From Tenacibaculum sp. 190524A02b (GTDB taxonomy: Bacteria > Bacteroidota > Bacteroidia > Flavobacteriales > Flavobacteriaceae), in NCBI RefSeq assembly GCF_964036645.1, contig NZ_OZ038525.1, forward strand, positions 3,166,001 to 3,230,000: 64,000 nucleotides of DNA. Direction: 5' to 3'. Made by a program: the position numbers and the translations under genes. Below the pieces are notes generated by a model. It had not been told where the DNA came from, did no database searches, and saw only the letters and a list, made by a program, of their open reading frames with translations. Below, piece by piece: positions 9,783-62,159 of the stretch; the stretch's first letter is position 1; each line of letters starts with the position of its first letter.

Positions 9783-10154
9783 TTAATTTATGTAGCTTTT
9801 AGAGGGTGTGTTGTTAAAAACTAATTTTTGAAATCTGTAACCAAATAAAAATAGAATTGAAATATTTAAAGTATTGAATAAAATAAATATAATTGTTATT
9901 AGGAAAGCAGGAAGCTTTAAGTTTTCAGCAACATTATTTAGATAAGAAATATTATCCTTTGTAAAATAAAATATTATTGAGAAAAATATAAGTTGGATAA
10001 TTAACATCTTTGAAAAAATTTTCTTGTCTTCTTGAATCCAAGCTCCAATAAAGCCTATTATAATTGTAATGATTAATACATAGATATATTTTTCAAATAG
10101 AAGTTGTGGCACTAATGCTAGTATAAATGGTAATGTGTTTTTAATACGTTTCAT
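9783..10154 (-). CDS. Small four-helix membrane protein at the end of the biosynthetic operon
   Basis: 123 residues with about four hydrophobic helices (NTLPFILALVPQ, YVLIITIIIGFIG, LIIQLIFFSIIFYF, PAFLITIIFILF). No known domain recognised. Its ATG overlaps the stop of the acylase gene by one base (TAATG), so it is translated with it. By position it probably helps the exporter/acylase step, for example as a small membrane partner, or confers immunity. Neither can be decided from sequence. Confidence 0.7.
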   Translation of the reverse strand: MKRIKNTLPFILALVPQLLFEKYIYVLIITIIIGFIGAWIQEDKKIFSKMLIIQLIFFSIIFYFTKDNISYLNNVAENLKLPAFLITIIFILFNTLNISILFLFGYRFQKLVFNNTPSKSYIN

Positions 10155-12460
10155 TACTTGAAATTTATAGTATTGATAATATTTTTTAAGTCTTCTGGAT
10201 TTTCTGCAAACTGTGTTTTCTTATAACGTCCTTTTTTCCAATAGTCAATCTGATCTGAATAATTATTTGAGTTAATTTTTCCACTTTGACCTCCAGCCAT
10301 GATTGTATAACCTTTAATATTTCCTTTTTCCATTTCATAAATAGATCTAAAAACTGGGTGAACAGAAGCATTTAAGTTAATGGTGTTTTTATTTCCTCCT
10401 GCATTTACTATTTTATTTCCAAAACCTGGTAAAAAAGAAATGTTGTAAATATTTATAGTGCTAATTTGGCTATACTCCCTTTTTACTAACTGATTTTCAA
10501 CACTTAAAATAGAGTCTGTTTTTTTTAGAATATTATTAATAATGATTTCTTTTGTACTGTATAGTTTACTGGAAGAAACCTCGCTATTTAAATAATTCAA
10601 GAATGATTTCATAGAAGGTACTTGCTGTACTTTTAACTCTTCATTTGCAAAACGTTTTGCTTCCTCTTCTACATTTTTTCTTAATGTTTCATATATAAAG
10701 GCTTTTTCAGAGTTATTTTTCATGTTTCCATCCCAGTTGGAAAACAACTCTGTGAGATTATTATATTTTTTAGTTATACTATTATTTTTAAACACTTTTT
10801 TTAAGTGAAAAAATGAAAGATCTACCTCATCTAATTGCATTGACTTTATTGCTGGAACACTCCAATCATCTTTCTCTTTTAACAACTTATCAATACGGTT
10901 AACTCTATAATCATCTTTATGCCAATGAGCTCCAAAATAATGCTTGTTTTGAGCAGGTAATTGATTTGCTGAAAAAAGATAGTTCTGTTCTGGATTACTA
11001 GTTTCCCATTGCGTAGCTATAAACTCACTTTTCAAAGGCTTTTTTGTACCATCTAGCAGTCCTCCATTAAAACCTTGGGGTCTTTTTGGCAGCTTTCCTG
11101 CACAAACAATTCCTATGGTATCATTGACATCTGCATAAATAAAGTTTTGAGGTGGGTAATCATATTCTTTTAATGCGTTTTTAAACCCATTATACGAATC
11201 TGTTTTCATTATATTAAACAATGCTTTCATAGAATAGTTCTTTTCAGAAGGATGCCATTTTTGAGCATAATAAGTACTGTCTTCTTTATTAACTATTCCA
11301 TGAACAGTACGTTTAACCTTGAATTTTTTTTCTCCTTTACCTCTTATATTGATACTGTATTCTTTTTCTTGAAATGGAATCCAATTTCCTTGAAATAAAT
11401 ATAGGCTATCCTTTTTTGTTTTTAATAAATAACTATCCATTAAATCCCACTCTCCATTAGTAATACCCCAAGAAATGTTGGTATTATGACCACTAACTAC
11501 TAAAGGAACTCCTGGAATACTATATCCATAAACTTTAATGGTGTTTCCTATTAAACTTGTTTCATAAAAAGCTCCTGGTAAGGTTAAAAACAAATGTGGA
11601 TCATTAACAATTAGTGAGCTTGCTTTGTTTGTTTTTTTACTATTTATTGCCCAATTGTTACTTCCTATATCTGTATTAAATTTAGATAAGATAACTTTTC
11701 TGTTATTTAAAGTAATATTTTCTATTACTGATGAATCAATAGGAGTTTGAGTAGTTATTACTGAAGGTAAGATTGTTTTTAATGCTTCAAATTTTTGAGG
11801 ATATAGTTTATTCAGTAGCTTTTGGGGTAGTTTATCTAATAATTCCTGACGCTCTGCATGGTAATCAAAATAAGCTAAATTCCAACTCATATACCACGCT
11901 GTTAAAATGCAATATTCTGGTTTCCAATTTTGAGGTTTTAAATTAAATATAGTGTATAACGGATCGTTTACTTTATTTTCTTCTAAAAATGCGTTAATAC
12001 CATCACTATAATTTACTAAATAAGCGTAAAGTTCATGAGAATTTGCTTTATATTCTTCTAATATTTCCTTTGCTTTTCTATGAAACTCATAGGGTTTCCA
12101 AAACTTATCTGACTGAATTACTCTCCCTCCCAACATTGATGATAATTCTCCTTTCACCATTTTAGACATGAGCTCCATTTGAAAATAGCGGTCTTTAGCA
12201 TGCATATACCCAAGACCATAAGCCAAATTAGAATCTTTACTAGCATAGATATATGGAATTCCTAATGTGTCTATTTTAATTACTAACTCTTTTCCTTTAT
12301 TAAGTTTTGGGTAAATTTTATTTGTTTTTTTTATTCCTAAAAGACCTGTTTTATACGTTAATAGACTACCAATATTATTTATTGGAAAAAATTTATAATT
12401 TGTAATAAATATCCATAATAAGGATATTAATAAGACTATTGAAAGTTTACTGATTTTCAT
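10154..12460 (-). CDS. Penicillin-acylase-family (PvdQ-like) N-terminal-nucleophile acylase
   Basis: 768 residues. An N-terminal hydrophobic segment (~6-20) would send it across the inner membrane. The precursor has the penicillin acylase layout: alpha chain with GYMHAKDRYFQMEL, a spacer, then the autocleavage site in the IGSNNWAI motif, where Ser267 would become the N-terminal nucleophile of the beta chain. VNDPHL and SGHNTNISWGITNG follow as in the family. These enzymes hydrolyse amides such as penicillin G, acyl-homoserine lactones or, for PvdQ, the fatty acyl chain of the pyoverdine precursor. It is coupled (one-base overlap) to the PvdE/SyrD-type exporter upstream, so removal of an N-acyl group from the exported peptide is the best guess. 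Confidence 0.88.
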   Translation of the reverse strand: MKISKLSIVLLISLLWIFITNYKFFPINNIGSLLTYKTGLLGIKKTNKIYPKLNKGKELVIKIDTLGIPYIYASKDSNLAYGLGYMHAKDRYFQMELMSKMVKGELSSMLGGRVIQSDKFWKPYEFHRKAKEILEEYKANSHELYAYLVNYSDGINAFLEENKVNDPLYTIFNLKPQNWKPEYCILTAWYMSWNLAYFDYHAERQELLDKLPQKLLNKLYPQKFEALKTILPSVITTQTPIDSSVIENITLNNRKVILSKFNTDIGSNNWAINSKKTNKASSLIVNDPHLFLTLPGAFYETSLIGNTIKVYGYSIPGVPLVVSGHNTNISWGITNGEWDLMDSYLLKTKKDSLYLFQGNWIPFQEKEYSINIRGKGEKKFKVKRTVHGIVNKEDSTYYAQKWHPSEKNYSMKALFNIMKTDSYNGFKNALKEYDYPPQNFIYADVNDTIGIVCAGKLPKRPQGFNGGLLDGTKKPLKSEFIATQWETSNPEQNYLFSANQLPAQNKHYFGAHWHKDDYRVNRIDKLLKEKDDWSVPAIKSMQLDEVDLSFFHLKKVFKNNSITKKYNNLTELFSNWDGNMKNNSEKAFIYETLRKNVEEEAKRFANEELKVQQVPSMKSFLNYLNSEVSSSKLYSTKEIIINNILKKTDSILSVENQLVKREYSQISTINIYNISFLPGFGNKIVNAGGNKNTINLNASVHPVFRSIYEMEKGNIKGYTIMAGGQSGKINSNNYSDQIDYWKKGRYKKTQFAENPEDLKNIINTINFK

Positions 12461-14097
12461 TATATAGTTAAGGTCTCTTTGGTTGGTGTAATATTATTTT
12501 TTATTTCTTCCAATTTTCCATAATTCATTTTAAAAAGTCTATTAGCTTCATGGTAATAGCTATCGTCATGAGTAATGGCAATTATTGTTTTATTTTCTTC
12601 TTTTACTATTTTGTGTATAATTTCTGAATAGAATTTTTTTCTAAAATAAGGATCTTGATCAGCAGCCCATTCATCTAAAACTAAAATGGGACGGTCTTCA
12701 AGAATAGCTGTGATTAATGCTAATCGTTTTCTTTGTCCTGTTGAAAGATCTGTAGTAGAAAAATATCCGTTTTCGATTTTTACTTTATCCGCTATTTCAA
12801 ACAATAATAATAATGAATTCAATTTCTGATTATCTATATTTTTAATTCCATAAAAATCATCAAAGAGGTAAAAATCATTAAATACTGGGGCAAATAATTG
12901 GTTAATTTTTTCAGGGGTTTCAAATAGCTTATCATTAAAATAGACTTCTCCTTGTTTAGGAGCGTATATATTTAGTAATAAATTAATAAAAGTGGTTTTT
13001 CCTGCTCCATTTCCTCCATGAATAAATATAATTTCATTAGCATGCACGGATAGGTTAACAGGTCCAATTTGAAACGAGTTTTCTTCATATTCAAAACTAT
13101 AATCCTTGAACGTTAGTTTTTCAAATTTTTTCACAAAATTATCATGTAATGAATCTTGATAAAAAAAGGTGTCATCTCCATTATCTGCTAATTCTTCTTT
13201 TAAATATTTTAACTTATTATAAGAAACAATTCCTTGATTTAAAGGTGGAATAGCTAGCATTATAGTTACTATTGGGTTTAATAAAAATAATAATGCAAAA
13301 ACAAAGCTAATTGAGGTTTCTATAGAAACCTTAAAATACATACCTGCATATAATAGAATAAATGTTATAATAATATAAAATAACATTTGACTAATTAATT
13401 GACTATTTAAATACCCTATATAAGCAAGTGTGTTTTTTTCTTTCCCTTCTATTAATAACAAAGAAACTTTCTTATTATATATTTCTTTCCCTTTTTCTTG
13501 ATTTACTTTTATTTCTTTATTACCATTCAATACTCCATTAAAATAGTGCATGAATTTTTGTTCAATAGCTCTTACCTCCATAAAGTTTTTATTTCCTTTG
13601 CGAGAACTATATAAATAAGCTAAAGTGCCTGTTAAAATAATTAGCAAACTAACTATAAATAAAGGAACAGATAAATACACTAAATAAATAAATGAGGCTA
13701 ATACTAATATTATAGCAGAAGTAAAACTAATAATTACTAAAGAGGCATTTGTAATATTATTAACATCAACTGTCAATGCTGAATATAATTCATCTTTAGT
13801 TTGTTTCACTTTAGGATAAGGTGCTTTAATAATTGCTTTAACTACATAGGCTCTTATGTCCCAAAATATTTTTTGAGAAATTTCAATAATTCCTTCTGAA
13901 AGTAGTCTTCTAGAGATAAAAAACACCGTTATAACAGTTGCAAATAATAACAAATAATTATGTTCACTGGGCAGTTTAGAATTAATAATTGTGCTTATTA
14001 CTTCATTGACTAACGTAATAAACATAAATCCAGAAAATCCGGAAAACAACGCGATAAAGAGATATACAATTAGTATACTCCTGCTTATAAACTTCAT
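12460..14097 (-). CDS. Cyclic-peptide-type ABC exporter (PvdE/SyrD family), fused permease-ATPase
   Basis: 545 residues. Six transmembrane helices occupy about residues 1-290. The ATPase follows, with Walker A GGNGAGKTT (~360), signature LSTGQRKRLAL (~451) and Walker B LVLDEWAADQDP (~472). The DEWAADQDP form is typical of the PvdE/SyrD exporters of nonribosomal peptides. It would move the assembled peptide across the inner membrane as a homodimer. It lies 25 bases after the methyltransferase, and its stop overlaps the acylase ATG (TAATG), giving a co-translated export-plus-maturation pair as in pyoverdine systems, where PvdE and PvdQ play these parts. Confidence 0.92.
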   Translation of the reverse strand: MKFISRSILIVYLFIALFSGFSGFMFITLVNEVISTIINSKLPSEHNYLLLFATVITVFFISRRLLSEGIIEISQKIFWDIRAYVVKAIIKAPYPKVKQTKDELYSALTVDVNNITNASLVIISFTSAIILVLASFIYLVYLSVPLFIVSLLIILTGTLAYLYSSRKGNKNFMEVRAIEQKFMHYFNGVLNGNKEIKVNQEKGKEIYNKKVSLLLIEGKEKNTLAYIGYLNSQLISQMLFYIIITFILLYAGMYFKVSIETSISFVFALLFLLNPIVTIMLAIPPLNQGIVSYNKLKYLKEELADNGDDTFFYQDSLHDNFVKKFEKLTFKDYSFEYEENSFQIGPVNLSVHANEIIFIHGGNGAGKTTFINLLLNIYAPKQGEVYFNDKLFETPEKINQLFAPVFNDFYLFDDFYGIKNIDNQKLNSLLLLFEIADKVKIENGYFSTTDLSTGQRKRLALITAILEDRPILVLDEWAADQDPYFRKKFYSEIIHKIVKEENKTIIAITHDDSYYHEANRLFKMNYGKLEEIKNNITPTKETLTI

Positions 14098-14122
14098 CTA
14101 TTAAATAAGGTTAAATGTAAAA

Positions 14123-14908
14123 CTATTGCTTTTTAGAAATACAGATGTAAGATAATGGAAAGGCTGCATCTTCTTTTTCTATATCAGATTTTAGGTTTGA
14201 TATATCAAAAGGAAATTCTTCAAATGATTGAATATTTAAGCCATGTTTAATTTGTAAATTAAACAGCTCTCCTAATGTATAATTAAATGTATAGTTATCA
14301 CTACCCTCATACTCTTTATTACCTAAATAATCTAATCCTCCTTTTTCTTTATATGGCCCTTTTTTAAAGTACAAATCTGTTTTAGAAAGTTTCATTTCTT
14401 CATCAATTATCCAGCTAAAAGGGTGTTGCTCTTGAATAACTAATTGTGATCCAGCATGCATGAAATTAGACAGTGTGCTAAAAAGCTTATCTAAATCTGG
14501 TAACCATACCAAAGCGCCAACTGTTATTAATACAAAATCAAATGTTTCAGAAATATGATTTTCAATATTATAAACATTTTCAGTATGAAATTTACAGTCT
14601 AATTGTAATTTTTCATTTAATTCTATAGCTGAAGTAATGGCGTCTATAGAAAGGTCTACCCCTACACATTTCCCTGCTCCTTTCTTCTTTAACGATATTA
14701 ACTCTTCTCCATCGTTACAACAAACGTGTAAAATACTTTTATTGGCAAAGTTCAAACGATTCATTGTTTGAAGTAACTTTTCATCAATAGCCACAAAGTC
14801 TTTATCTTGAATAAATTTTTCTTTGTATTTTTCTTTAAACTCTTGATGAAGGGTGTTGACTTCTGACCAAGCAATTTTATTTGCTTCTATATAATTTATA
14901 TCATTCAT
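14123..14908 (-). CDS. SAM-dependent methyltransferase (class I)
   Basis: 261 residues with a Rossmann-type methyltransferase core. Motif I appears as ILHVCCNDGEE (a divergent form of the G-rich loop), followed by the acidic end of strand 2 in CVGVDLS, motif II-like FDFVLITVGAL, and a segment near IQEQHPFSWIID typical of small-molecule methyltransferases. It is the second methyltransferase of the cluster; the other is embedded in the terminal NRPS. Position in the operon (31 bases after the carbamoyltransferase gene, 25 before the exporter) argues for a late tailoring step on the product or a precursor. The acceptor atom is unknown. Confidence 0.87.
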   Translation of the reverse strand: MNDINYIEANKIAWSEVNTLHQEFKEKYKEKFIQDKDFVAIDEKLLQTMNRLNFANKSILHVCCNDGEELISLKKKGAGKCVGVDLSIDAITSAIELNEKLQLDCKFHTENVYNIENHISETFDFVLITVGALVWLPDLDKLFSTLSNFMHAGSQLVIQEQHPFSWIIDEEMKLSKTDLYFKKGPYKEKGGLDYLGNKEYEGSDNYTFNYTLGELFNLQIKHGLNIQSFEEFPFDISNLKSDIEKEDAAFPLSYICISKKQ

Positions 14909-14938
14909 TAAAAAAAAATTTAATATTCATTAAAAGCA

Positions 14939-16702
14939 TTATGCTTCTAAGCCTTGTAAAGATAGTTTTTGTTCAGCTGATTTTAAATGTACATTTTCTT
15001 CTTTTAACATAAGGTTATTTCCTAAAACTAAAACATCTATTTTTGTCTTTAAAAAAGTGTTAATTGCGTTTTCTGGAGTACATACAATAGGCTCTCTATC
15101 ATTGAATGAAGTATTTAATAACAAAGGAACTCCTGTTAATTCTTTAAACTTTGTGATTAACTTATGGTATTTAGGATTAGTACTTTTTTGTACTTTTTGA
15201 ATTCTTGATGTTCCATCAACGTGAACTACCGCAGGAATATTTTCTTTTTTGTTTTTATTTACTGGATAAGCCATTAACATATAATCTGCTGCTGTTGCTT
15301 CCTTTCCTATATTAAACCATTCAGCTGCATCTTCTGCTAAAACACTAGGACAGAAAGGTCTATGGTCTTCACGGTGCTTTACTACTGAGTTTAATTTTTT
15401 TACCATTCCTGGGTCTCTAGGATCAGCTAATAAACTTCTATTTCCTAATGCTCTTGGTCCAAACTCCATAGCCCCTTGAAACCATCCTATTACTTTTCCT
15501 TCTGTTAATAATTCTGCTACGATTTCTTCAATATTTTCATGTTCTCTATATACTAACCCTTTAGCTTCTATAGCAGCCTGTATATCATTATTATTAAAAG
15601 ATGGCCCTAAATATGTATGATTCAGCGTTATTCTTTCATTACCTTCTAGTCCTTCAGTATACAATTTTAGTGCTGCACCTAGTGCTGTTCCTGCATCGTT
15701 TGCTGCTGGTTGAATATATATATCTTCAAATTTACTATTTTCAAAAATGATTCTATTAGTTACACAATTAAGCGCTACTCCACCTGCTAAACACAGTTTT
15801 TTTGATTGTGTTTTTTCATAAGCTTTCTGTACCATATTCATTACAATAGTTGTTGTAATTTCTTGTAATGATGCTGCAATATCTTGATGAACTTTTAGAA
15901 GTGGATCATTAAATGATCGTTTAGGAATTCCAAAAATTTCTTCTAAATCAGTATAGTCTTCAATTCTAAACTTAATTATATCTTTATCAATTTTGAAGAA
16001 TGTATCATTATTCAGCGTAATAAATTTTTCATATGCGCTCATGAACTTCTCTGGCTCTCCAAATGATGCTATACTCATTACTTTACAGGCATCATATTCA
16101 GAATAGCCTAAAAATTTTGCCATTTTTTCCCAAAGAAACCCTATTGAGTTTGGGTATTCTACTTGTTGAATTTTTGTGATTGTACTTCCTTTTCCATGTG
16201 CTATTGTAGATGACTCAATTTCACCAATACCATCTATAGAAACTATGGCTGCATCTTCAAAACCAGAAGGATAAAAAGTTGAAGCTGCGTGAGCTATTGC
16301 ATGTTCTATGTAAACAAACTCTCCTTTAAATCCTAACTCTTTTAATTGATAAGGAACTTCCTTTAATTTTAAATAAAATAATTCTTCTCCTTCCTTACTT
16401 CCCCAGTTTTCTGCTTCGTAAAAATCGTCTACTTTTAAGTTTTCATCTAATCTTCTCTGAGGCTCAAAAGAAAACCCAATTTCATCTATATCCGAAAGGG
16501 TTAAGTTTCCTATTCTAAGACATTCATTTATTGCCTGCATTGGAAGTTCATTAGGGTTATCTATCTTGGCTTCTTTAGCATGTTTGATTCTTGATAATCT
16601 TTCCTCTTCAATTGCTGCAACCAATTTACCGTTTACTACTAAACATGCTGATGATTCATGGTAAACAGAATTTATCCCTAGTATTGCTTTTGTCGTTTTC
16701 AT
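14939..16702 (-). CDS. NodU/CmcH-type carbamoyltransferase
   Basis: 587 residues, the normal family length. The N-terminal kinase-like fold shows ILGINSVYHESSACLV, AAIEEERLSRIKH, the EHAIAHAAS histidine motif and IVSIDGIGE. The C-terminal YrdC-related domain shows GAMEFGPRALGNRSLL, ADPRDP and REDHRPFCPSV. Relatives (TobZ, NodU, CmcH) make carbamoyl-adenylate from carbamoyl phosphate and ATP and pass the carbamoyl group to a hydroxyl of an antibiotic or sugar. It starts 1 base after the NRPS gene stop, so translation is coupled. It most likely carbamoylates a hydroxyl, or less typically an amine, of the peptide. Confidence 0.92.
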   Translation of the reverse strand: MKTTKAILGINSVYHESSACLVVNGKLVAAIEEERLSRIKHAKEAKIDNPNELPMQAINECLRIGNLTLSDIDEIGFSFEPQRRLDENLKVDDFYEAENWGSKEGEELFYLKLKEVPYQLKELGFKGEFVYIEHAIAHAASTFYPSGFEDAAIVSIDGIGEIESSTIAHGKGSTITKIQQVEYPNSIGFLWEKMAKFLGYSEYDACKVMSIASFGEPEKFMSAYEKFITLNNDTFFKIDKDIIKFRIEDYTDLEEIFGIPKRSFNDPLLKVHQDIAASLQEITTTIVMNMVQKAYEKTQSKKLCLAGGVALNCVTNRIIFENSKFEDIYIQPAANDAGTALGAALKLYTEGLEGNERITLNHTYLGPSFNNNDIQAAIEAKGLVYREHENIEEIVAELLTEGKVIGWFQGAMEFGPRALGNRSLLADPRDPGMVKKLNSVVKHREDHRPFCPSVLAEDAAEWFNIGKEATAADYMLMAYPVNKNKKENIPAVVHVDGTSRIQKVQKSTNPKYHKLITKFKELTGVPLLLNTSFNDREPIVCTPENAINTFLKTKIDVLVLGNNLMLKEENVHLKSAEQKLSLQGLEA

Positions 16703-16703
16703 T

Positions 16704-26048: not shown

Positions 26049-26085
26049 GAGTCAATGCTATTTTATAAGTATTTTACGTTATTGT

Positions 26086-26104
26086 TTACTAATTTACTTA
26101 GTAA
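26086..26104 (-). repeat. Short inverted repeat between the KS gene and the terminal NRPS gene
   Basis: A perfect 7-bp inverted repeat (TTACTAA / TTAGTAA, 5-base loop) lies in the 80-base gap between these genes, the widest gap inside the biosynthetic operon. It has no T-run, so it is not a classical terminator. It could be an mRNA processing or translation-control hairpin; the evidence is only the palindrome. Confidence 0.3.
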
Positions 26105-26128
26105 GATTTCTTAGGTAAGAAGTGTTAT

Positions 26129-31273: not shown

Positions 31274-31298
31274 ACGTAGTTTATTAAATAGCTTGGGG

Positions 31299-35173: not shown

Positions 35174-35181
35174 AAAGGTAT

Positions 35182-36216: not shown

Positions 36217-36222
36217 AGTTAT

Positions 36223-37158: not shown

Positions 37159-37232
37159 TTTTAAATTTTTACCCAATGAGCATCCCTGCTTCTTTAATTA
37201 AGATGCCTTGAATAATTTTATTTTTTAATTGT

Positions 37233-43331: not shown

Positions 43332-43334
43332 AAT

Positions 43335-43724
43335 TTATAAAGCCTCTTGAAATGCCTCTATTTTGTTATCAACACTAATAATCATATTTGTTTTCTCATC
43401 TGGGAATACAACTTTTGGTTGATGCGTTTTAACATCTTTAATGTCAATGGTTGCATATCCAATAATAATTACCAAGTCTCCAACACTTACTCTTCTAGCC
43501 GCTGCTCCATTTAGGCATATAACTCCAGACTTCCTTTCTCCTTTTATTACATAGGTTTCTATTCGTTCTCCATTGTTAATATTAACAATTTGAACCTTTT
43601 CATACTCATGTAGTCCTGAAGCATCCATTAAGTCTTCATCAATGGTAATACTTCCTACATAATTCAAATCTGCTTGAGTTACTCTTGCTCTGTGAATTTT
43701 CGATTTACAAACTTCTATTTCCAT
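43335..43724 (-). CDS. panD: Aspartate 1-decarboxylase (PanD-like), beta-alanine supply
   Basis: 129 residues, the PanD size. The self-cleavage site Gly24-Ser25 lies in YVGSITID; cleavage turns Ser25 into the pyruvoyl cofactor. Other family features are the N-terminal [26 protein letters not shown], the NGAAARR segment and [10 protein letters not shown]. The enzyme decarboxylates L-aspartate to beta-alanine, normally for pantothenate. It sits between two NRPS genes (3-base gaps each side), and the next NRPS carries an A domain with a beta-alanine-like pocket. I infer it is a dedicated supplier for the peptide. No pantothenate gene is nearby. Confidence 0.93.
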
Positions 43725-43727
43725 ATT

Positions 43728-48308: not shown

Positions 48309-48324
48309 TATTTAATACGTTTTT

Positions 48325-51300
48325 TTAGATAGTTATTTCTTCTACCTCCTCATTAAAGTCAAAGTTTGTTGACTGTTGTGAAGACAAAACAGATATAATT
48401 TTTGAGATGTTTTGTATTATAGGCTCTTGAAAGAAAGTGGTTATTTGAATGGTGATATCAAACTGCTTATCAATTCGATTTTTAATAGTAACTGCTTTTA
48501 TACTATTCCCCCCTAATCCAAAGAAATTATCTGTAATCCCTACTTTTTCTACACCTAATACTTCTTGCCAGATTAAAACCAACTTTTCTTCTATTTCATT
48601 ACTTGGCGCTACATATGGATCTACCAATGCCTCTTTTGTTATTACTTCTTCCAACGATTTTTTGTCTACTTTTCCATTAGGTGTTAATGGAATTATAGGT
48701 ATTTGCATAAAATGATTAGGAATCATATAGTCTGGCAAATATTTCCCAAGGAAACTCTTAACTTCATTTAGCTCTAATTCTTCTTGTCCAACTAAATAAG
48801 CCACTAAATATTTTTCTTGCTTATCTTTTACTGTACTAACCACAGCTTGTGTTATACTATGGTTCTCTAACAAAACTCGCTCAATTTCTCCCAACTCAAT
48901 ACGATATCCTCTTATTTTTACCTGAGTATCTTTTCTCCCTATAAATTCAAGATTTCCATTAGGTAACCACCTTGCTAAATCTCCTGTTTTATATAAACGT
49001 TCTCCTTCTTTGTACGGGTTTTTGATAAATTTTTCGTTTGTAAGTTCTAAACTGTTTAAATATCCTCTAGATAATCCAGCTCCAGATATACATAACTCAC
49101 CAATTACCCCTTTAGGTTGTAATTGATTCGTATTAGATAATATACATATTTGTGTATTATCTATTGGTGTTCCTATTGGTATTACACTTGTGCTTTCTTC
49201 ATTTATTTTATAATAAGTTGTATAAGTTGTATCTTCAGAAGGACCGTATAAATTATAAACATTTAGATTAGTTAATGGTAATAGTTTTGTAAATCTAGGA
49301 GGAATTATTTCCCCTGCCATGTTTAATATTGATACATTAGATAAATCTACGTTATTCTCTATAAAAGACTCTATCACAGACGGTACAGTATTGATAAGTA
49401 TATTTTTATCAATATCTAAATAATTAGGAATTGACAAGCCATTTTCTACTACTCTTATTTGTTTTCCTGCACTTAATGTATAAAAAACTTCATATACAGA
49501 AAGATCAAAACAATGTGAAGTTGAAAAATAGGTAATATCAAAACTATCAGTATTAAATTCTTTTAACGACCAATTAATTAATGCTGAAGCATTTCTATGC
49601 TCAACCATTACTCCTTTGGGGTTCCCTGTTGATCCTGAAGTATATATAACATAAGCTAGTTGATTATTAACTATTTCAACTTGTGGCGTATGAATATTTT
49701 GCTCCTTTCTTTTGAATTCTTCTATATAGTTTTCCGTGATTACAAAAGTACATTCACTATCTTTCTTAATATAGTTGATTCTTTCTTGAGGATAAAGTGG
49801 ATCAATAGGAACATAAGCACTTCCCGTTTTTAACACTGCCAATAAACTTACCACTAGCCAATCATTACGTTTCAACTCTACTCCTATAAATGTTTCCTTC
49901 TCTATTAAACCTGTCCCCAATAAATCATTAGCCATTGCATTGGACAAACTATCCAACTCTTGATAAGTTATTTGTTTGTTTTCATACACAATTGCAATAG
50001 CTTCTGGGTTTTTAGCTACTTGTTCCCTAAATAAGTCTACCAATGTTTTATTGTTGGGATAATCTACATCTGTGTCATTAAAATCGTACAATAGTTCATT
50101 CTCTTCTTCTGATGTAAGATACCCTAAATTACTTATCTTTTCATTAGGAAAATCAATCCCCGATTCTATAAATCGCTCTAAATGCTCACAAAGCTCATCT
50201 ATCTGAAATGCTTCATAGATATCTGTATTGTATTCCAATCGAAGACATAATCTTGAATCTACTTCTGAAAAAGAAAATGTCATATCAAATTGACTTACCT
50301 GCCTTGATACTTCATTATATGGACTTATGTTTACATCTTTAAGGGTTATTGCTGTTTCTTGCTGATTTTGTAAAACAACTAACACATCAAACAAGGCTGA
50401 TCGAGAAGTATCTCGTTGTAAACCTAGCTCGTCTACTATACTACTAAATGGGTACTCTTGGTGTTCGTAAGCTTCTAATAATGTAACTTTTTGTTTTGCT
50501 AATAAACTTATAAAACTATCATCTCCTTCAAAACGTGTTCGGATTGCTAAAGTATTCAAATACAAACCTATTTGATTCGCTAAATCTGAATGAGAACGCC
50601 CTGCTATTGGTCCTCCTAATAGAATATCTGTTAAACCTGTATATCTATAAAATAAGCCATTAATTCCTGATAACAAACTCATGTACAAGGTAACACCTTG
50701 TGATTGGTTAAATGTTTTGAGTTTATCACTAAATGATTTTGAGAAATTATACAATTTAGTAGCTCCATGATAACTCTTAACTAAAGGTCGTTTTTTATAA
50801 CTTGGGAGTTCTAAAACTGGTAATTCACCTGCTAATTTATTTTGCCAATAAGACCCTTGTATAGTTAATCGTTCTTGACTTTCATCGCTTTCTAACCAAA
50901 GTGTGTAATCTTTATATTGTATTCTTAATGTTGGTAAATCAATATTTTCTTTATTTAAAAGTTGATTATACACATACATTAACTCTTTGGTAAAAACTTC
51001 CATTGACCAACCATCTCCTATAATATGATGAATGGCAAATAGTAAATAATATGAATCTTCACCTGTTTGTAATAGTTGAGATTTTAATAAAGGTGCCTGA
51101 CTTAAATCAAATTTTTCTTCGTAAAAACTGGTTATTATTTCCTTTACGTCTTCTTTTATAACTTTCTTATTCTCTATAGTAAAAGCAAGCGCATCTTCAT
51201 TTATAACTTCTTGATATACTCCCTCTTCTATCTCTACAAAACGTGTACGTAAACTCTCATGACGTTTGAGTAGGTATTGAAAAGATTGTTGTAATACTTC

Positions 51301-54300
51301 AACATTCAAATTGCCTTCCATTTCAAAAACACCTGGAATATTGTATGCTTTATTTCCTCCTTCAAATTGGCTTAAAACCCATAATCGTTGTTGTGAAGAA
51401 CTTAATGGATAATAGGGTCTTGGTGGAAAATTAGGGATGTTTACTATTTTATCTCTCTTTATTTTTTCTGATAAATATGCTATGGTAGGATTTGTAAATA
51501 CTTCTTTTACTTTAACAGTTGATGACAATACTTTATTCACCTCATTTATTAACTGTGTAACCTTTAAACTATGCCCTCCTAAGTCAAAGAAATCATCTGT
51601 AACTCCAATTTTTTCAACGTCTAATAAATTTTGCCATATTTCCACCAACTTACTTTCTATTTCATTTCTGGGGGCTACATATTCTCTTACCTCATCTAAT
51701 TCAACTTTAGGTAATAACTCTTTATTAATTTTACCATTTGGTGTTAATGGAACTTCATCTATTTGTGCAAAATAACTAGGAATCATATAGCTTGGTAAAT
51801 AACTATGAAGCTTTTGTTTAACTATTTCCAACTCCAAAATTCCTTTTCCTTTTACATAAGCTACTAAATGTTTTTCTTCTTTCTTTTCTATTATTGTAAC
51901 AACTGCTTCAGATATTTTCTCTTGACTTGTTAATGCGTATTCGATTTCCCCTAATTCAATACGGTATCCTCTTATTTTAACTTGAGCATCTTTTCTTCCT
52001 ATAAATTCAATATCTCCGCTAGGCAACAATCTTGCTAAATCTCCTGTTTTATATAAACGTTCTCCTTGTTTAAAAGGATGTACAATGAAACTTTTATTAG
52101 TGAGTTCTGGACGGTTTAAGTATCCTCTAGATAATCCTGCCCCTGATATACATAACTCACCAATTACCCCTTTAGGTTGTAGTTTATTTGTTTGCTGATC
52201 TAATATAAATATATCTGTATTGGCTACTGGACGCCCTATAGGAAGTGGAAGTTCATCTTTTTTAGATACTTTATAACTTGTGGTTACAACTGTATTTTCG
52301 GTTGGTCCGTAGTTATTATACAATTCACAACCTTCAATATACTTTACTGCTAAAGCTTCTCCTCCTGATAAAATTTTCAATCCTTGTGGCAATAAGGTGT
52401 TTTTTAATTCACCAATAACTTTAGGGGGCAAATAACAATGGGTTATTTGATTTGCTGTTAAAAATGATGACAGCCTAAGTGTATCTAATCGAATATCATT
52501 ATTTGAAATTGGGAATAGAGAGCCTCCAAAACATAGGTAAGGAAAAACCTCCCAAACTGAAGCATCGAAGGCTACAGAAGAATATAATGTACTTTTTGTA
52601 TTTTCACTTAAATTATATTCATTTTTATGCCAAAAACATAAGTTTGTTAAACTTTTATGTTCTATCATTACCCCTTTAGGGCGTCCAGTTGAACCTGAAG
52701 TGTAAATAACATAGGCTAGTTGATTACTAGTTACCTCTATTTTTGGTTCACTTATATTTGGTTGCTTTTGTCTTAACTCTTCTATATATTCTTTTGTAAT
52801 TACAAAAGTACATTGGCTATCTTCTTTAATATAATTAATTCTTTGCTCAGGATATGATGGATCAATAGGAACATAAGCTGCTCCTGTTTTTAGTATTGCC
52901 AATAAACTAATTACAAACCAATCACTACGTTCTAATTCTACCCCTATAAGCACCTCTTTATAAACCAGTTGTGTCGATAACAAATCATTAGCCATCATAT
53001 TAGAAAAATCTTCTAAATCTTGGTACGTAAGTTCTTTACCTTCATATACTATTGCTGTACCATTTGGTGATTTTTTTACTTGATTTTTAAATAAATCTAA
53101 AACTGTTATATCACTTGGGTAATCTATTTGTGAATTATTTAATATATTTAATAACTCTTTTTCTTGCGCTACAGATACACACGATACTTGTTTATAAGGA
53201 GTTTCTGGAGAAGAAACTAATGCTTCTAGAATATCAAAGTATGCATCTAGCATTTGATTCATAACATCATCTGCATAAATATCAGAATTGTATTCCCATT
53301 CAACTATAATTGTTTTATTAGTTTCTTCCATTCCTTCTAAGGCTGCTTGCTCTAGAGGTGTTACGACAACTATATTTATATCAAATTTTGCTGATCGGTT
53401 ATGTGAATCTACAATTTCTAATTCAAGGTTAGGAAGAAATAAATCTCTTGATGGTGTATTCATAAAACTGAAAGCGTACTGAAACAAAGGCATAATACCT
53501 AAACTTCTAACTGGGGATACATGTTCTACTACTTTTCCAAAAGGTGTATCTTCATAGCTATATGCCTCAAAACAAGTTTCTTTTACTTTATCTAACATAT
53601 CCTTTAAAGAATCATTATTATCTAGCTTTGTTCGTAAAGCCATCGTATTAATAATCATTCCCAACATATTATCTAAAGAAGCCAATCGTCTATTTGCAAC
53701 AGCTGTTCCTACACATATATCCGTTTCATTACTAAACTTGCTTAACGTTATTTTAAACGCTGTTAACATAGTAATGAATAATGTAGAATTATTTTCTAAA
53801 CTAAAAGCTCTTATTTTATCTGATAACTCTTCATTTATTGTTTTAATTAATAATTCTCCATTTCCAGAAATCTCATTAGGTCTTTTATTTTTTTGAGGTA
53901 ATGGTAATACAGGAATATGTCCTTTTAATTTTTCTTTCCAAAAAGAAATATGATTATTTAGTCTTTCATCATTAAAAAACTCTTTTTGCCAATAAGAAAA
54001 ATCTTTAAACTGAAGTTCTAATTGAGAAAGCTTATAATTTCTATTATGAGATAGCTTTGTGTATGTATCAATAAACTCTCTAAGTAAAATTCCTTGTGTC
54101 CATCCATCATGAATAAGATGATGTTCACAAAAGACAAGGATATTATTTTTTTCTGATTTTTGAAGAATATACACTCTAAGTAGTGGTCCGTTTTCTAAAT
54201 CAAAATCTAAATTTCCTTCTTTTAAAATAAAATCATGTATTTCTTGTTCTTGCTCTTCTTCAGAGAATCCTACCAAAGAGATTAAAGGTATATGAAAATA

Positions 54301-57300
54301 ATATGGTGCTACTATTTTTTGATATGGAACACCTTCAATAACAGGAAATACTGTTCTTAATATTTCATGCTTTTCAATAAGCAATGTAAATGTTTCCTCT
54401 ATAAGTGAAATATCTAATTCCCCTGACATTTTGATTGCCCTTGGAACATAGTATGCTTTATTTTCCTTATTCAGCTGATCTAAAAACCATAAACGTTCTT
54501 GTGGAAATGACAACGGATATAATTCTTGTTCAGGTGCTTTTTGTAATTCAAATACAGTAGAAACTTCTTTGTTTTCTATTACCTTAACTACCTCACATAT
54601 TGTTGGTGCTTCATAAAATTCTTTTAATGAAATATCCTGTTTTCTATGTTCTCTAATTATTCCAATAAATTGATTTGCCAACAAAGAATGCCCTCCTAAC
54701 TCAAAAAAGCTAGTATGTATATCAATTTCATCTAAATGTAAAAGTTCTTTCCAAATATTAGTAATTTCATGCTCAGCTTCAGTTTTTGCTAATACTACCT
54801 CTTGTTTTATAAAATTCTTTTTAGGTAAAGGCAATTGTTTTACATCTACTTTTCCACTTGTATTTAAAGGAAAGTCCTCTAATACTACCACATGATTTGG
54901 AATCATATAAGCAGGTAATTTAACTTTAAGTTGCTTTATTAAAGAAGTTTCTTCAACATTAATGTTACCCGATAAATAAGCAACAAGTACTGGGTTATTT
55001 TGTAGTTCCTTTATCGTTACAATACAGTTTCTTATTAACGGATTGAGAGATTTAATAGCTTGCTCTATTTCCTTAGGCTCAATTCGATACCCTTTAAAAC
55101 TCAATTGACTATCCTTTCTTCCTAAAAAGATTACATTGTCTTGATTATCCCATTTTCCAACATCACCTGTTTTATAAACACGCTCTCCATCTAATTCAAC
55201 AAAAAAAGTATCTGTTAATGTTTTATTATTAAGATAACCAATCGCCAATCCTTTTCCTCCTAAAGCTATTTCTCCAACAGCTCCTTTTGGTAAAAGTTTA
55301 CCATTATTGATGATAAAAACATTTCTATTTGTTATTGGTTTACCAATAGGTAATGTAGTATCTTTTGGGTTTACTTTATGGTAAGTAGCACATACCGTAC
55401 TCTCTGTTGGACCATATGTATTGTATACATCAATATTATTTAACAGGTTATTTACCTGCTCTTTTTTCAATACATCACCACCACTGATAATGTGTTTTAA
55501 AGACAACTTGTACCTACCTTTATTTTCATTCAAATACTGAACAACAAAAGGATTAGTACTCAGCAATGTAACATGATTTTTACTACACTCTTGAAGTAAG
55601 CTATGAAAGTCTTTTGGGTTCTCAGAAATTACTAATTTTCCTCCTATACTTAATATTGGGAAAATCTCTTCAATTGAAGTATCAAATACAAACGATGATT
55701 GTTGAATAACACAATCTATATCACTTAGTTTAAAATATTCTGAAAAAGTTAATGCATAATCTATCAATGACTCATGCCTAATTAGTACTCCTTTAGGTTT
55801 CCCTGTTGAACCAGATGTATAAATTATATAAGCTTCATCTTCTTTCGATATTTTCACCTTTTCTAATAAAGGTTGAGAATCTTGTTCTAAAACACTATCA
55901 ACCAAAACAGTCGGTTCAAACCTATATGTTATTTTTTCATCATCAGTTATCAGTAACTTAATTTCACTATCTTGGATAATAAACTCAATTCTATCTTCAG
56001 GAAAAGTTTTATCTATAGGTACATAAGTAGCTCCTGATTTTAATACGCCTAAAATTACTGGAATTATATTTATTGATCGATCTATTAAAACTCCTACTCG
56101 ATCTCCTTTACAAATTCCTTGAGCATTTAAGAATCCTACTATTTTTTCTATCTTAACATTTGCTTTATTATAGTTTAAAGTTTCCTCTTTATACCTTAAT
56201 GCTTCATTCAAAGGGAAATTATTAACATTCTCATTCCATAACTCTAAAAAGTTTTCATGCTTAAATGGCCTAGTTACCCCCTTTGAAATTTTTTCTATTT
56301 CTTTTTTCTGCGTCTTATTAATTATAGGTATTTCCTTTACTCCTGTATTAAGTATAGTACTTGTATTTTCAAGTATGTAATGTAATGACTCTATAAACTC
56401 ATTAGCAATGTATTCAGGCACATAACTACCATTAATATCAAAACGAAACTTTAATCCTTCATTATTATAATCCATAATGTGAACAGATATTGGATCTTCT
56501 TCACTGGAGTTAGATAGTGCTACAATTTCTGATTCAAATTTTGAGAACGTATTTTGGTAATCAAAGCTTTCGTAAGATATTCTAATATCATACAATCTAT
56601 TCCCTTTATAGGATAAAGACTTTATAATTTCTGCTTGTTGAAATTTTTGATGCCTAAACATGGTAAAAATATCCTTTTTAACCTGTTTAATAAGTTCTAA
56701 AAAAGAAATGTCTTTATCTAGCTGTACTTGCAATGGAAGTAAATTGATAAAAGGACCGAATATTTTTCTATCCAATCTACTCAGCCTATTAAGAACAGGA
56801 GTTCCTATATTAATCTGATTTGTAAAATAGAATTTAGAAAATACAATAGAAAAACTAGCCAGTAATATATGAAATACACTTATGTTTTCCTCTTTAGATA
56901 GTGACTTCATTTTCTGTAATACATCTTCAGACAAGTAAAGTTCTTTATCATAAAAATTACATTCTTGATATTTTTTATGATAAATCAATTCAGGAAAAAC
57001 TGTATATTTATTTTGCCAATATTCTTTATCTTTAAAAAAAGCACTTGAATTATAGTACCCTACTTCTTCTTCAATATGATTGCTAAACTCTTTAACATTA
57101 ATTTTCTCATAGGTACTAATATCATTATTTAATAAAGAGTTATATATAGTACTGACCTCATTAAACAACAATTGAAATGAATATCCATCCGCAATAAGGT
57201 GGTGTAACTTTGTATACCAAATAAAAGTATTAGCACTTATTTTTACTAACCATATTTTGAATATTTTTTTATCTTCTTCAAGATTAAAAGGCTTTTTAAA

Positions 57301-57603
57301 ATCTTTACGAATTAAATCTAAGATTTCTTGTTTATTTCTTTTCTCAATAAAATTAACCCCTTCGTTAAACTCCTTTTCATCTTCATTAATTAATAAAAAC
57401 GGCTTTCCATTTTCTTCTCTAAAAACACTTTTCAATATTTTATGTTTATCAGAAAAAATAGACAACGCTTCTTTAAATAAGTTAAAATCTACATAACCGT
57501 CAATAACCGCATATCCTCCAATATTGTATTTAGGAGATTCAGGAGTTAGTTTTTGATCTAACCAAAGATATTTTTGTAGGGAAGAAATTTCACTCTTATT
57601 CAT
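48325..57603 (-). CDS. First NRPS subunit: C-A-T, C-A-T, C-A-T
   Basis: 3092 residues, first gene of the operon. Module 1: C (HHLIADG ~134), A (TSGSTGKPKG ~599; pocket DTESIGTVCK, close to the lysine code of bacitracin synthetase), T (GGHSL ~971). Module 2: C (HHLIHDG ~1163), A (TSGSTGRPKG ~1638; pocket DAWYLGNVVK, close to leucine codes), T (GGHSL ~2009). Module 3: C (HHIIGDG ~2194), A (TSGSTGNPKG ~2658; pocket DLYNNALTYK, Ala-like), T (GGNSI ~3031). It begins with a C domain, so the first residue is probably acylated (starter C), which fits the PvdQ-like acylase in the cluster. The C-terminus (NFDFNEEVEEITI) looks like a short acidic docking motif for a TubC-type partner. No epimerisation domain. 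All pocket codes were aligned by eye. Confidence 0.94.
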   Translation of the reverse strand: MNKSEISSLQKYLWLDQKLTPESPKYNIGGYAVIDGYVDFNLFKEALSIFSDKHKILKSVFREENGKPFLLINEDEKEFNEGVNFIEKRNKQEILDLIRKDFKKPFNLEEDKKIFKIWLVKISANTFIWYTKLHHLIADGYSFQLLFNEVSTIYNSLLNNDISTYEKINVKEFSNHIEEEVGYYNSSAFFKDKEYWQNKYTVFPELIYHKKYQECNFYDKELYLSEDVLQKMKSLSKEENISVFHILLASFSIVFSKFYFTNQINIGTPVLNRLSRLDRKIFGPFINLLPLQVQLDKDISFLELIKQVKKDIFTMFRHQKFQQAEIIKSLSYKGNRLYDIRISYESFDYQNTFSKFESEIVALSNSSEEDPISVHIMDYNNEGLKFRFDINGSYVPEYIANEFIESLHYILENTSTILNTGVKEIPIINKTQKKEIEKISKGVTRPFKHENFLELWNENVNNFPLNEALRYKEETLNYNKANVKIEKIVGFLNAQGICKGDRVGVLIDRSINIIPVILGVLKSGATYVPIDKTFPEDRIEFIIQDSEIKLLITDDEKITYRFEPTVLVDSVLEQDSQPLLEKVKISKEDEAYIIYTSGSTGKPKGVLIRHESLIDYALTFSEYFKLSDIDCVIQQSSFVFDTSIEEIFPILSIGGKLVISENPKDFHSLLQECSKNHVTLLSTNPFVVQYLNENKGRYKLSLKHIISGGDVLKKEQVNNLLNNIDVYNTYGPTESTVCATYHKVNPKDTTLPIGKPITNRNVFIINNGKLLPKGAVGEIALGGKGLAIGYLNNKTLTDTFFVELDGERVYKTGDVGKWDNQDNVIFLGRKDSQLSFKGYRIEPKEIEQAIKSLNPLIRNCIVTIKELQNNPVLVAYLSGNINVEETSLIKQLKVKLPAYMIPNHVVVLEDFPLNTSGKVDVKQLPLPKKNFIKQEVVLAKTEAEHEITNIWKELLHLDEIDIHTSFFELGGHSLLANQFIGIIREHRKQDISLKEFYEAPTICEVVKVIENKEVSTVFELQKAPEQELYPLSFPQERLWFLDQLNKENKAYYVPRAIKMSGELDISLIEETFTLLIEKHEILRTVFPVIEGVPYQKIVAPYYFHIPLISLVGFSEEEQEQEIHDFILKEGNLDFDLENGPLLRVYILQKSEKNNILVFCEHHLIHDGWTQGILLREFIDTYTKLSHNRNYKLSQLELQFKDFSYWQKEFFNDERLNNHISFWKEKLKGHIPVLPLPQKNKRPNEISGNGELLIKTINEELSDKIRAFSLENNSTLFITMLTAFKITLSKFSNETDICVGTAVANRRLASLDNMLGMIINTMALRTKLDNNDSLKDMLDKVKETCFEAYSYEDTPFGKVVEHVSPVRSLGIMPLFQYAFSFMNTPSRDLFLPNLELEIVDSHNRSAKFDINIVVVTPLEQAALEGMEETNKTIIVEWEYNSDIYADDVMNQMLDAYFDILEALVSSPETPYKQVSCVSVAQEKELLNILNNSQIDYPSDITVLDLFKNQVKKSPNGTAIVYEGKELTYQDLEDFSNMMANDLLSTQLVYKEVLIGVELERSDWFVISLLAILKTGAAYVPIDPSYPEQRINYIKEDSQCTFVITKEYIEELRQKQPNISEPKIEVTSNQLAYVIYTSGSTGRPKGVMIEHKSLTNLCFWHKNEYNLSENTKSTLYSSVAFDASVWEVFPYLCFGGSLFPISNNDIRLDTLRLSSFLTANQITHCYLPPKVIGELKNTLLPQGLKILSGGEALAVKYIEGCELYNNYGPTENTVVTTSYKVSKKDELPLPIGRPVANTDIFILDQQTNKLQPKGVIGELCISGAGLSRGYLNRPELTNKSFIVHPFKQGERLYKTGDLARLLPSGDIEFIGRKDAQVKIRGYRIELGEIEYALTSQEKISEAVVTIIEKKEEKHLVAYVKGKGILELEIVKQKLHSYLPSYMIPSYFAQIDEVPLTPNGKINKELLPKVELDEVREYVAPRNEIESKLVEIWQNLLDVEKIGVTDDFFDLGGHSLKVTQLINEVNKVLSSTVKVKEVFTNPTIAYLSEKIKRDKIVNIPNFPPRPYYPLSSSQQRLWVLSQFEGGNKAYNIPGVFEMEGNLNVEVLQQSFQYLLKRHESLRTRFVEIEEGVYQEVINEDALAFTIENKKVIKEDVKEIITSFYEEKFDLSQAPLLKSQLLQTGEDSYYLLFAIHHIIGDGWSMEVFTKELMYVYNQLLNKENIDLPTLRIQYKDYTLWLESDESQERLTIQGSYWQNKLAGELPVLELPSYKKRPLVKSYHGATKLYNFSKSFSDKLKTFNQSQGVTLYMSLLSGINGLFYRYTGLTDILLGGPIAGRSHSDLANQIGLYLNTLAIRTRFEGDDSFISLLAKQKVTLLEAYEHQEYPFSSIVDELGLQRDTSRSALFDVLVVLQNQQETAITLKDVNISPYNEVSRQVSQFDMTFSFSEVDSRLCLRLEYNTDIYEAFQIDELCEHLERFIESGIDFPNEKISNLGYLTSEEENELLYDFNDTDVDYPNNKTLVDLFREQVAKNPEAIAIVYENKQITYQELDSLSNAMANDLLGTGLIEKETFIGVELKRNDWLVVSLLAVLKTGSAYVPIDPLYPQERINYIKKDSECTFVITENYIEEFKRKEQNIHTPQVEIVNNQLAYVIYTSGSTGNPKGVMVEHRNASALINWSLKEFNTDSFDITYFSTSHCFDLSVYEVFYTLSAGKQIRVVENGLSIPNYLDIDKNILINTVPSVIESFIENNVDLSNVSILNMAGEIIPPRFTKLLPLTNLNVYNLYGPSEDTTYTTYYKINEESTSVIPIGTPIDNTQICILSNTNQLQPKGVIGELCISGAGLSRGYLNSLELTNEKFIKNPYKEGERLYKTGDLARWLPNGNLEFIGRKDTQVKIRGYRIELGEIERVLLENHSITQAVVSTVKDKQEKYLVAYLVGQEELELNEVKSFLGKYLPDYMIPNHFMQIPIIPLTPNGKVDKKSLEEVITKEALVDPYVAPSNEIEEKLVLIWQEVLGVEKVGITDNFFGLGGNSIKAVTIKNRIDKQFDITIQITTFFQEPIIQNISKIISVLSSQQSTNFDFNEEVEEITI
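49928..51422. repeat. Near-perfect 1.5-kb direct repeat, copy 2
   Basis: Second copy of the 46624-48118 segment, within module 3 (C domain and start of A) of the first NRPS. The boundaries fall at about the C-domain start and after A1, before A-domain specificity residues, so the duplication carries the C domain but not the substrate pocket. Confidence 0.95.
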
Positions 57604-62151: not shown

Positions 62152-62159
62152 TAAATTAA

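What the first reader, a model, noticed from the sequence alone, without database searches (positions are those of the whole stretch)
9783..57603. A ~48-kb hybrid NRPS-PKS operon with its own precursor supply
Fifteen tightly spaced minus-strand genes (gaps 0-80 bases, several stop/start overlaps) encode eight A domains, nine carrier proteins and one ACP, nine C domains, one KS with trans AT, an aminotransferase and a TE. Beta-alanine and diamino-acid pathways are interleaved between the synthetase genes. Inferred order: acyl-[Lys-like]-[Leu-like]-[Ala-like]-[hydrophobic]-[Ala-like]-[beta-Ala]-[malonate-derived beta-amino unit]-[unit of unknown loading]-[methylated diamino acid]-[polar]. I know of no described product with this full architecture, but I could not search.
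Basis: partly seen in the sequence, partly recalled or inferred. Interest (0 to 1): 0.85.

Follow-up and report, generated by a model that had tools for sequence, protein, structure and literature searches.

The report
Antibiotic assembly line with swapped parts
This flavobacterial operon encodes a 15-gene peptide-and-polyketide assembly line with its own building-block genes, shares its last section and two tailoring genes with a Flavobacterium cluster predicted to make a TAN-1057-like antibiotic, and so likely makes an undescribed relative in which one building block would be made on the line instead of being loaded ready-made.

Summary
In detail: 15 minus-strand genes (9783-57603), gaps of at most 80 bases, eight A, nine C and nine carrier domains, one ACP, one KS, a separate AT, an aminotransferase and a TE, with panD and a diamino-acid cassette between synthetase genes. 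The window's operon lacks amidinotransferase and aminomutase. A full adenylation domain of the Flavobacterium line is replaced by 235 residues without A motifs, and a beta-alanine module plus KS-ACP-aminotransferase stands upstream, which would build beta-ornithine on the line. SbnA/SbnB is replaced by a kinase / PLP enzyme / ATP-grasp-lyase cassette, probably for 2,3-diaminobutyrate. Two further contigs show the same combination. Product, leader removal and loading of the A-less carrier are untested. New variant of a known kind.

The parts
48325..57603 (-). NRPS A: C-A-T-C-A-T-C-A-T (codes DTESIGTVCK, DAWYLGNVVK, DLYNNALTYK)
43728..48308 (-). NRPS B: TubC-type docking domain-C-A-T-C (code DVFYLGAICK)
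43335..43724 (-). aspartate 1-decarboxylase PanD (beta-alanine supply), one of two copies in the genome
37233..43331 (-). NRPS C: ~236-aa unassigned N-terminus, A-T-C-A-T, ~190-aa unassigned tail (codes DLFNNALTYK and beta-Ala-like VDAQLSVAYK)
36223..37176 (-). GHMP kinase, PduX/threonine-kinase-like
35182..36216 (-). SbnA/cysteine-synthase-like PLP enzyme, a lysine aligned with SbnA's MK
32501..35254 (-). ATP-grasp + argininosuccinate-lyase fusion (likely start near 35173)
31299..32501 (-). FabD-like acyltransferase, GHSLGE motif
26129..31273 (-). PKS-NRPS D: KS-ACP-aminotransferase-C
16704..26048 (-). NRPS E: A-less region-T-C-A(MT)-T-C-A(GNAT-fold insertion)-T-TE
25344..26048 (-). E residues 1-235: no A motifs; stands where four relatives have a half C domain and a full A domain; residues 139-223 model like the C-terminal subdomain of adenylating enzymes (low confidence)
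25119..25343 (-). carrier domain T7 without an adenylation domain in cis; Ser invariant in three orthologues
22509..23261 (-). methyltransferase inserted in A7 upstream of core motif A3
17844..18281 (-). GNAT-fold insertion in A8 between motifs A8 and A10
14939..16702 (-). carbamoyltransferase (nearest solved: NovN, GdmN, TobZ), 62% identical to the Flavobacterium cluster's
14123..14908 (-). free SAM methyltransferase, 57% identical to the Flavobacterium cluster's
12460..14097 (-). cyclic-peptide-type ABC exporter (TIGR01194 above cut-off)
10154..12460 (-). penicillin-acylase-family Ntn hydrolase, predicted nucleophile Ser267, hydrophobic N-terminus
9783..10154 (-). 123-aa protein without family match, hydrophobic segments
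46624..48134 (-). 1511-bp copy of a C-domain stretch (99.8% identical to 49928-51438)
49928..51438 (-). other copy of the 1511-bp C-domain stretch

Best explanation
The operon encodes an NRPS-PKS assembly line that is predicted to build an N-acylated leader peptide (Lys-Leu-Ala-X-Ala-like) followed by a TAN-1057-like basic section, in which beta-ornithine likely made on the line takes the place of amidino-beta-lysine and 2,3-diaminobutyrate likely takes the place of 2,3-diaminopropionate. Shown: the genes, the domain order, KS, AT, ACP, aminotransferase, carrier and TE motifs, and collinearity of E, carbamoyltransferase and methyltransferase with a Flavobacterium cluster that has amidinotransferase, lysine 2,3-aminomutase and SbnA/SbnB relatives. 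Inferred: PanD gives beta-alanine; A6 loads it; C6 puts the peptide on its nitrogen; KS and the trans AT add malonate; the aminotransferase turns the beta-ketone into an amine, giving a 3,5-diaminopentanoyl (beta-ornithine) unit on the ACP. The carrier that in Flavobacterium would receive the ready-made beta-amino acid has no A domain here and would act as a relay, or be loaded in trans. Threonine kinase, PLP enzyme and lyase would turn threonine into DABA, which A7 loads and its inserted methyltransferase alkylates; A8 adds a basic or polar residue; TE releases. The exporter and the acylase would remove the acyl group, or the whole leader, in the periplasm, activating the product.
For: Domain and motif tests. 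E has two close orthologues, 79% and 70% (3112 and 3117 aa, same A-less start), and four relatives at 44-45% with a full A domain, two of them named Flavobacterium. Contig G498:C13 read over 60 kb: NRPS, amidinotransferase (399.8 bits to SxtG), lysine 2,3-aminomutase (516 bits, cut-off 525), E-type protein, carbamoyltransferase 62%, methyltransferase 57%, SbnA, SbnB, NRPS; its E-type protein is 98.9% identical to the one named Flavobacterium tructae. The swap co-occurs: contigs of 41,283 and 31,803 bases (matched by length) carry A-less E, the kinase (84%, 73%) and D (79%, 67%); the 60 kb of G498 show neither kinase nor D. A7 code DIWELTADDK or DIWEMTADDK in the full-A relatives, DIWELNCDDK or DVWELNCDDK in the A-less set. 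The full A domain's code DPCDFGTVDK has two acidic positions, which would fit a basic substrate. Kinase, cysteine synthase, ATP-grasp and argH stand in this order on 4 of 4 plasmids inspected (chosen because both searches hit them; a transporter gene intervenes in one), after adenylation-domain genes on two. Cysteine synthase and argininosuccinate lyase genes are reported in one strain's cluster for gausemycin, which contains 2,3-diaminobutyrate (PMC12471526, passages). TAN-1057: dipeptide blocking peptidyl transfer (PMC11920963, passage), Dap moiety (PMC9248904, passage), guanidinylated beta-amino acid (PMC11552086, passages).
Confidence: 0.45

Rival explanations
1. An ordinary orphan acyl-peptide hybrid NRPS-PKS: ten units, T7 loaded in trans with a further amino acid by one of the other A domains, the KS-ACP-AMT-C protein simply adding a beta-amino unit as in iturin-type lines, and no TAN-1057 relation beyond shared tailoring genes.
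For: KS-ACP-AMT-C proteins are common (several of the 120 listed relatives are named iturin-family or aminotransferase class III); T7 serine and the C7 HHxxxDG motif are intact; the codes of the leader modules differ between the two clusters apart from the Ala-like ones.
Against: E, carbamoyltransferase and methyltransferase stay collinear between genera and a diamino-acid supply accompanies both; the A domain is missing exactly where the other line would load its beta-amino acid and where this line would just have made one.
Confidence: 0.38
2. A siderophore system: exporter and acylase work as PvdE and PvdQ in pyoverdine, diamino units carry ligands, and the TonB-type receptor next door takes the product back up.
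For: TIGR01194 exporter above cut-off; penicillin-acylase family; OMP_b-brl_3/Plug protein at 7290-9686, 96 bases downstream.
Against: No hydroxylase, hydroxamate or catechol gene among the family matches of the operon; PvdQ equivalog score 62.6 against a cut-off of 950, nearest solved relatives are penicillin G acylases. That OMP_b-brl_3 proteins are not specific to siderophores is from recall.
Confidence: 0.08
3. The kinase-PLP-ATP-grasp-lyase cassette makes something other than DABA, for example an amidated or ligated derivative of a phospho-amino acid, and A7 loads that.
For: ATP-grasp is present in all six cassettes seen (window, L024, four plasmids) and is fused to the lyase in the window and L024; its function is not needed for DABA, and the published DABA route has no lyase (PMC4052310).
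Against: A7 code stays close to that of the Dap-linked relatives; the PLP enzyme is SbnA-like.
Confidence: 0.35

Closest known systems
Flavobacterium cluster on G498:C13 (E-type protein 98.9% identical to one named F. tructae)
   Same: E-type terminal synthetase (45%), carbamoyltransferase (62%), methyltransferase (57%), SbnA-type gene, Ala-like leader modules
   Different: amidinotransferase + lysine 2,3-aminomutase + full A domain instead of panD/AT/KS-ACP-AMT; SbnA/SbnB instead of the kinase cassette; no relative of the window's exporter or acylase among ORFs of 120 aa or more on the 60 kb read
TAN-1057 A-D (Flexibacter antibiotics)
   Same: predicted methylated diamino acid next to an omega-amino beta-amino acid, carbamoyl group
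   Different: predicted beta-ornithine instead of beta-homoarginine, DABA instead of Dap, no guanidine source, extra C-terminal residue and N-terminal leader; comparison partly from recall, no cluster for TAN-1057 at hand
Iturin/mycosubtilin-type KS-ACP-aminotransferase-C proteins
   Same: domain make-up of D; 38% identity over 99% to a Brevibacillus protein with the same Pfam domains
   Different: would act on a beta-alanyl peptide with a trans AT instead of a fatty acyl chain (iturin role recalled)
Pyoverdine maturation (PvdE export, PvdQ deacylation)
   Same: exporter family and Ntn acylase gene side by side
   Different: acylase far below the PvdQ model cut-off and nearer penicillin G acylases

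Membership tests
Hybrid NRPS-PKS operon | C, A and carrier domains with core motifs plus KS, ACP and AT | tested here: met
   two C domains (C5, C9) lack the final G of HHxxxDG
TAN-1057-type cluster (as exemplified by the Flavobacterium ingredient set) | carbamoyltransferase, methyltransferase and E-type synthetase collinear | tested here: met
TAN-1057-type cluster (as exemplified by the Flavobacterium ingredient set) | amidinotransferase and lysine 2,3-aminomutase in the operon | tested here: not met
   none among the 15 genes; no amidinotransferase match in the genome (no positive control); aminomutase not searched genome-wide
TAN-1057-type cluster (as exemplified by the Flavobacterium ingredient set) | product identity | not testable with these tools
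   no metabolite data, no MIBiG
SbnA/SbnB Dap pathway | SbnA and SbnB equivalogs | tested here: not met
   SbnA model 207 bits against cut-off 350, no SbnB-type match in the operon; the Flavobacterium pair is also under the cut-offs (304 of 350, 312 of 327)
DABA supply (threonine kinase, PLP beta-replacement, lyase) | the three activities | tested here: inconclusive
   families fit and the order recurs on plasmids; the published DabABC set differs; activity not tested
PvdQ acylase | NF051460 equivalog score | tested here: not met
   62.6 bits against 950
Cyclic-peptide exporter TIGR01194 | score over cut-off | tested here: met
   325.3 against 286.2 bits
GNAT fold (insertion in A8) | fold of the predicted model | tested here: met
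Degenerate A domain (E residues 1-235) | A-domain homology | tested here: inconclusive

The most novel reading that the evidence does not exclude
Two lineages of flavobacteria run versions of one leader-peptide antibiotic line; in one, an imported beta-amino acid and its adenylation domain were replaced by a beta-alanine/PKS/aminotransferase module that builds a shorter homologue on the line, while the neighbouring diamino acid was switched from Dap to DABA by exchanging the supply cassette and a few A-domain residues. The Flavobacterium version is the missing biosynthetic cluster type for TAN-1057.
Probability: 0.3. Interest if true: 0.8.

Novelty: new variant of a known kind. Interest (0 to 1): 0.6.

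Why it matters
If right, it is a natural example of a synthetase module being replaced by a polyketide route to the same kind of residue, and it pairs a natural swap of diamino-acid supply with a change in A-domain code; both would be usable as design lessons. It also points to a candidate gene set for the class of TAN-1057, an anti-MRSA peptidyl-transfer inhibitor, for which no gene cluster was seen in the ten library papers that hold the name (listing of all ten; passages of six), and to a portable kinase/PLP/ATP-grasp/lyase cassette in three phyla.

Tried and rejected
Searching 299 family genomes (own included) with D gave a full-length match only to the window itself; next best was a 37% stretch in G019, whose 1632-residue frame has a KS-ACP-AMT-C order in a different cluster; by the listed matches 12 genomes, G019 included, carry an ACP-AMT stretch of D at 34-37%, most of them with a KS match in the same frame or nearby. 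The kinase was found at E <= 1e-10 only in the own genome among 395 order genomes, with two 28-31% traces besides the own hit among 59 relatives. The E end was in 1 of 249 genomes of the Flavobacterium genus at E <= 1e-200 and in 2 of 395 of the phylum at E <= 1e-180, the own one included. E residues 1-235, the N-terminus of C and its tail matched neither A nor C profiles; the start of the four full-A relatives is a C-domain half (99.5%). No credible Pfam match for these stretches or the 123-aa gene (weak chance hits only). A paper search for the codes gave nothing, one for Tenacibaculum gave nothing, and the listings (titles and starts of abstracts) showed no description of this cluster. A siderophore reading was set aside for lack of ligand genes. 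Starter C subtype: the first C domain matches chain 7c1k, which I recall as the RzmA starter domain, among its three best hits, but at scores tied with other C domains (92.5, 92.3, 92.0 bits), so the N-acyl start is an inference. The 'viral' fold library was not used. The idea that the unassigned ends of C are C-domain halves was dropped.
Full report
What is there. The window is positions 3,166,001-3,230,000 of a single 5.04-Mb contig, unnamed by the tools. A genome told as 'same family' (G498) encodes a protein 98.9% identical to one named Flavobacterium tructae, so the host is taken to be a member of Flavobacteriaceae. Fifteen minus-strand genes run from 57603 down to 9783 with gaps of -73 to 80 bases. 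Order of transcription: NRPS A, NRPS B, panD, NRPS C, GHMP kinase, PLP enzyme, ATP-grasp-lyase, AT, D (KS-ACP-AMT-C), NRPS E, carbamoyltransferase, methyltransferase, ABC exporter, penicillin-acylase-like hydrolase, 123-aa protein. Nine of the genome's 51 condensation-superfamily hits are here.

Module order. A: C-A-T-C-A-T-C-A-T. B: TubC-type dock-C-A-T-C. C: A-T-C-A-T with an N-terminal 236-residue and a C-terminal 190-residue stretch that match nothing tested. D: KS-ACP-AMT-C. E: 235-residue stretch-T-C-A(MT)-T-C-A(insertion)-T-TE. Specificity codes by alignment: DTESIGTVCK, DAWYLGNVVK, DLYNNALTYK, DVFYLGAICK, DLFNNALTYK, VDAQLSVAYK, DIWELNCDDK, DAMQVGCVDK. From recall these read Lys-like, Leu, Ala, hydrophobic, Ala, beta-amino acid, Dap/Dab-like, polar or basic. 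Active-site motifs of KS, AT, ACP, aminotransferase, TE and the inserted methyltransferase are present.

A 1511-bp stretch covering the third C domain of A and the start of its A domain recurs at 99.8% in B: a recent duplication or gene conversion between neighbouring modules.

The Flavobacterium cluster. Contig G498:C13 was read over 60 of 63.6 kb. Its E-type gene is followed by a carbamoyltransferase 62% and a methyltransferase 57% identical to the window's, in the same order; its first NRPS is 41% identical to the window's A. Between that NRPS and the E-type gene lie an L-arginine:glycine-amidinotransferase relative (399.8 bits to SxtG) and a lysine 2,3-aminomutase (516 bits, just under the cut-off of 525); after the methyltransferase come SbnA and SbnB relatives (304 bits against a cut-off of 350, 312 against 327) and an NRPS with two C, one A and one T. 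Amidinotransferase plus lysine 2,3-aminomutase would give beta-homoarginine, SbnA/SbnB would give Dap, and with N-methylation and carbamoylation these are the components I recall for TAN-1057. Papers seen in passages support parts of this: Dap in TAN-1057 (PMC9248904), a guanidinylated beta-amino acid (PMC11552086), a Flexibacter dipeptide blocking peptidyl transfer (PMC11920963). Ten papers of the library hold the name or a related one; neither the titles of the ten nor the passages read in six of them describe its gene cluster.

The swap. The window lacks amidinotransferase and aminomutase in the operon; no amidinotransferase match was found in the genome (no positive control). It has panD, a beta-amino-type A domain, a KS with separate AT, and an aminotransferase. 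Beta-alanine extended by malonate and aminated at the beta-ketone is 3,5-diaminopentanoate, beta-ornithine, one carbon shorter than beta-lysine. It would be made immediately upstream of the place where Flavobacterium has the A domain that the window lacks. The same combination occurs on the two contigs of the close orthologues: kinase 84% and 73%, E with the A-less start, D 79% and 67%, put together by equal contig lengths. The contig lengths of the four full-A relatives do not appear among the 120 listed matches of D or of the kinase (both lists are cut at 120). That is three of three with the swap (window included) and, read directly, one of one without it.

Remaining puzzle: C7 and T7 are still present with intact motifs. 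Either T7 relays the chain without adding a residue or it is loaded in trans with an extra amino acid.

Diamino-acid supply. Three of the kinase's 120 listed relatives are named threonine kinase (P0040, P0073, P0097) and many 'involved in propanediol utilization', which fits PduX (recalled). The PLP enzyme aligns to SbnA with a lysine in place of SbnA's. The third enzyme is an ATP-grasp-lyase fusion (PRK02186, 631.5 against 625). DABA is reported to arise from threonine by PLP-dependent beta-replacement, but with a VioK-like deaminase as partner (PMC4052310, passages); a gausemycin cluster, whose product contains 2,3-diaminobutyrate, holds cysteine synthase and argininosuccinate lyase genes that another gausemycin cluster lacks (PMC12471526, passages). 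Among plasmids, 104 records match the kinase and 595 the lyase. In four that matched both (two Streptomyces, Sulfuriferula, Azospirillum) kinase, cysteine-synthase-like, ATP-grasp and argH genes stand in this order, with a transporter gene before argH in Azospirillum, and after adenylation-domain genes in the two Streptomyces. In L024, a Flavobacteriaceae metagenome contig, the cassette follows a carrier-TE fragment of an NRPS and a TauD-type dioxygenase. A7's code is DIWELNCDDK or DVWELNCDDK in the A-less set and DIWELTADDK or DIWEMTADDK in the full-A relatives. The role of the ATP-grasp part is open.

Export and maturation. The exporter passes the cyclic-peptide family cut-off. The acylase is a penicillin-acylase-family protein with the expected nucleophile Ser267 and a hydrophobic N-terminus; it is not PvdQ by model score. 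Together they suggest an acylated precursor activated outside the cytoplasm. Whether the acylase removes only the acyl group or the whole leader is not shown.

Verdict.

Noticed in passing
G000:C1:3758718-3869506 (outside the window): A ~110-kb NRPS block with 35 of the genome's 51 condensation-superfamily hits and open frames of 4348-8595 residues.
   Followed up: no
window 46624-48134 and 49928-51438: 1511-bp direct repeat, 99.8% identical, carrying one C domain and the start of an A domain in two adjacent synthetase genes.
   Followed up: partly
window 37233-43331: About 236 N-terminal and 190 C-terminal residues of NRPS C give no credible family or profile match and no match among the 240 database proteins held at that time.
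   Followed up: partly
L044, L045, L046, L047 (plasmids) and L024: A kinase / cysteine-synthase-like / ATP-grasp / argH cassette recurs in the same order in Actinomycetota, Pseudomonadota and Bacteroidota, beside NRPS-type genes in three of these five.
   Followed up: partly
L038-L040 (G019:C8): A different flavobacterial NRPS-PKS cluster with a KS-ACP-AMT-C-like protein, two further KS-bearing proteins and a distant carbamoyltransferase (31%).
   Followed up: no
window 58207-58746 and 59353-62891: A transposase-domain ORF (DUF772) and, on the other strand, a two-component system (propeller histidine kinase and LytTR regulator) just upstream of the operon.
   Followed up: no
window 7290-9686: A TonB-type outer-membrane protein (OMP_b-brl_3 with plug) 96 bases downstream of the last operon gene on the same strand; membership of the operon unclear.
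   Followed up: no
window 63206-63712: Tachylectin-like protein.
   Followed up: no
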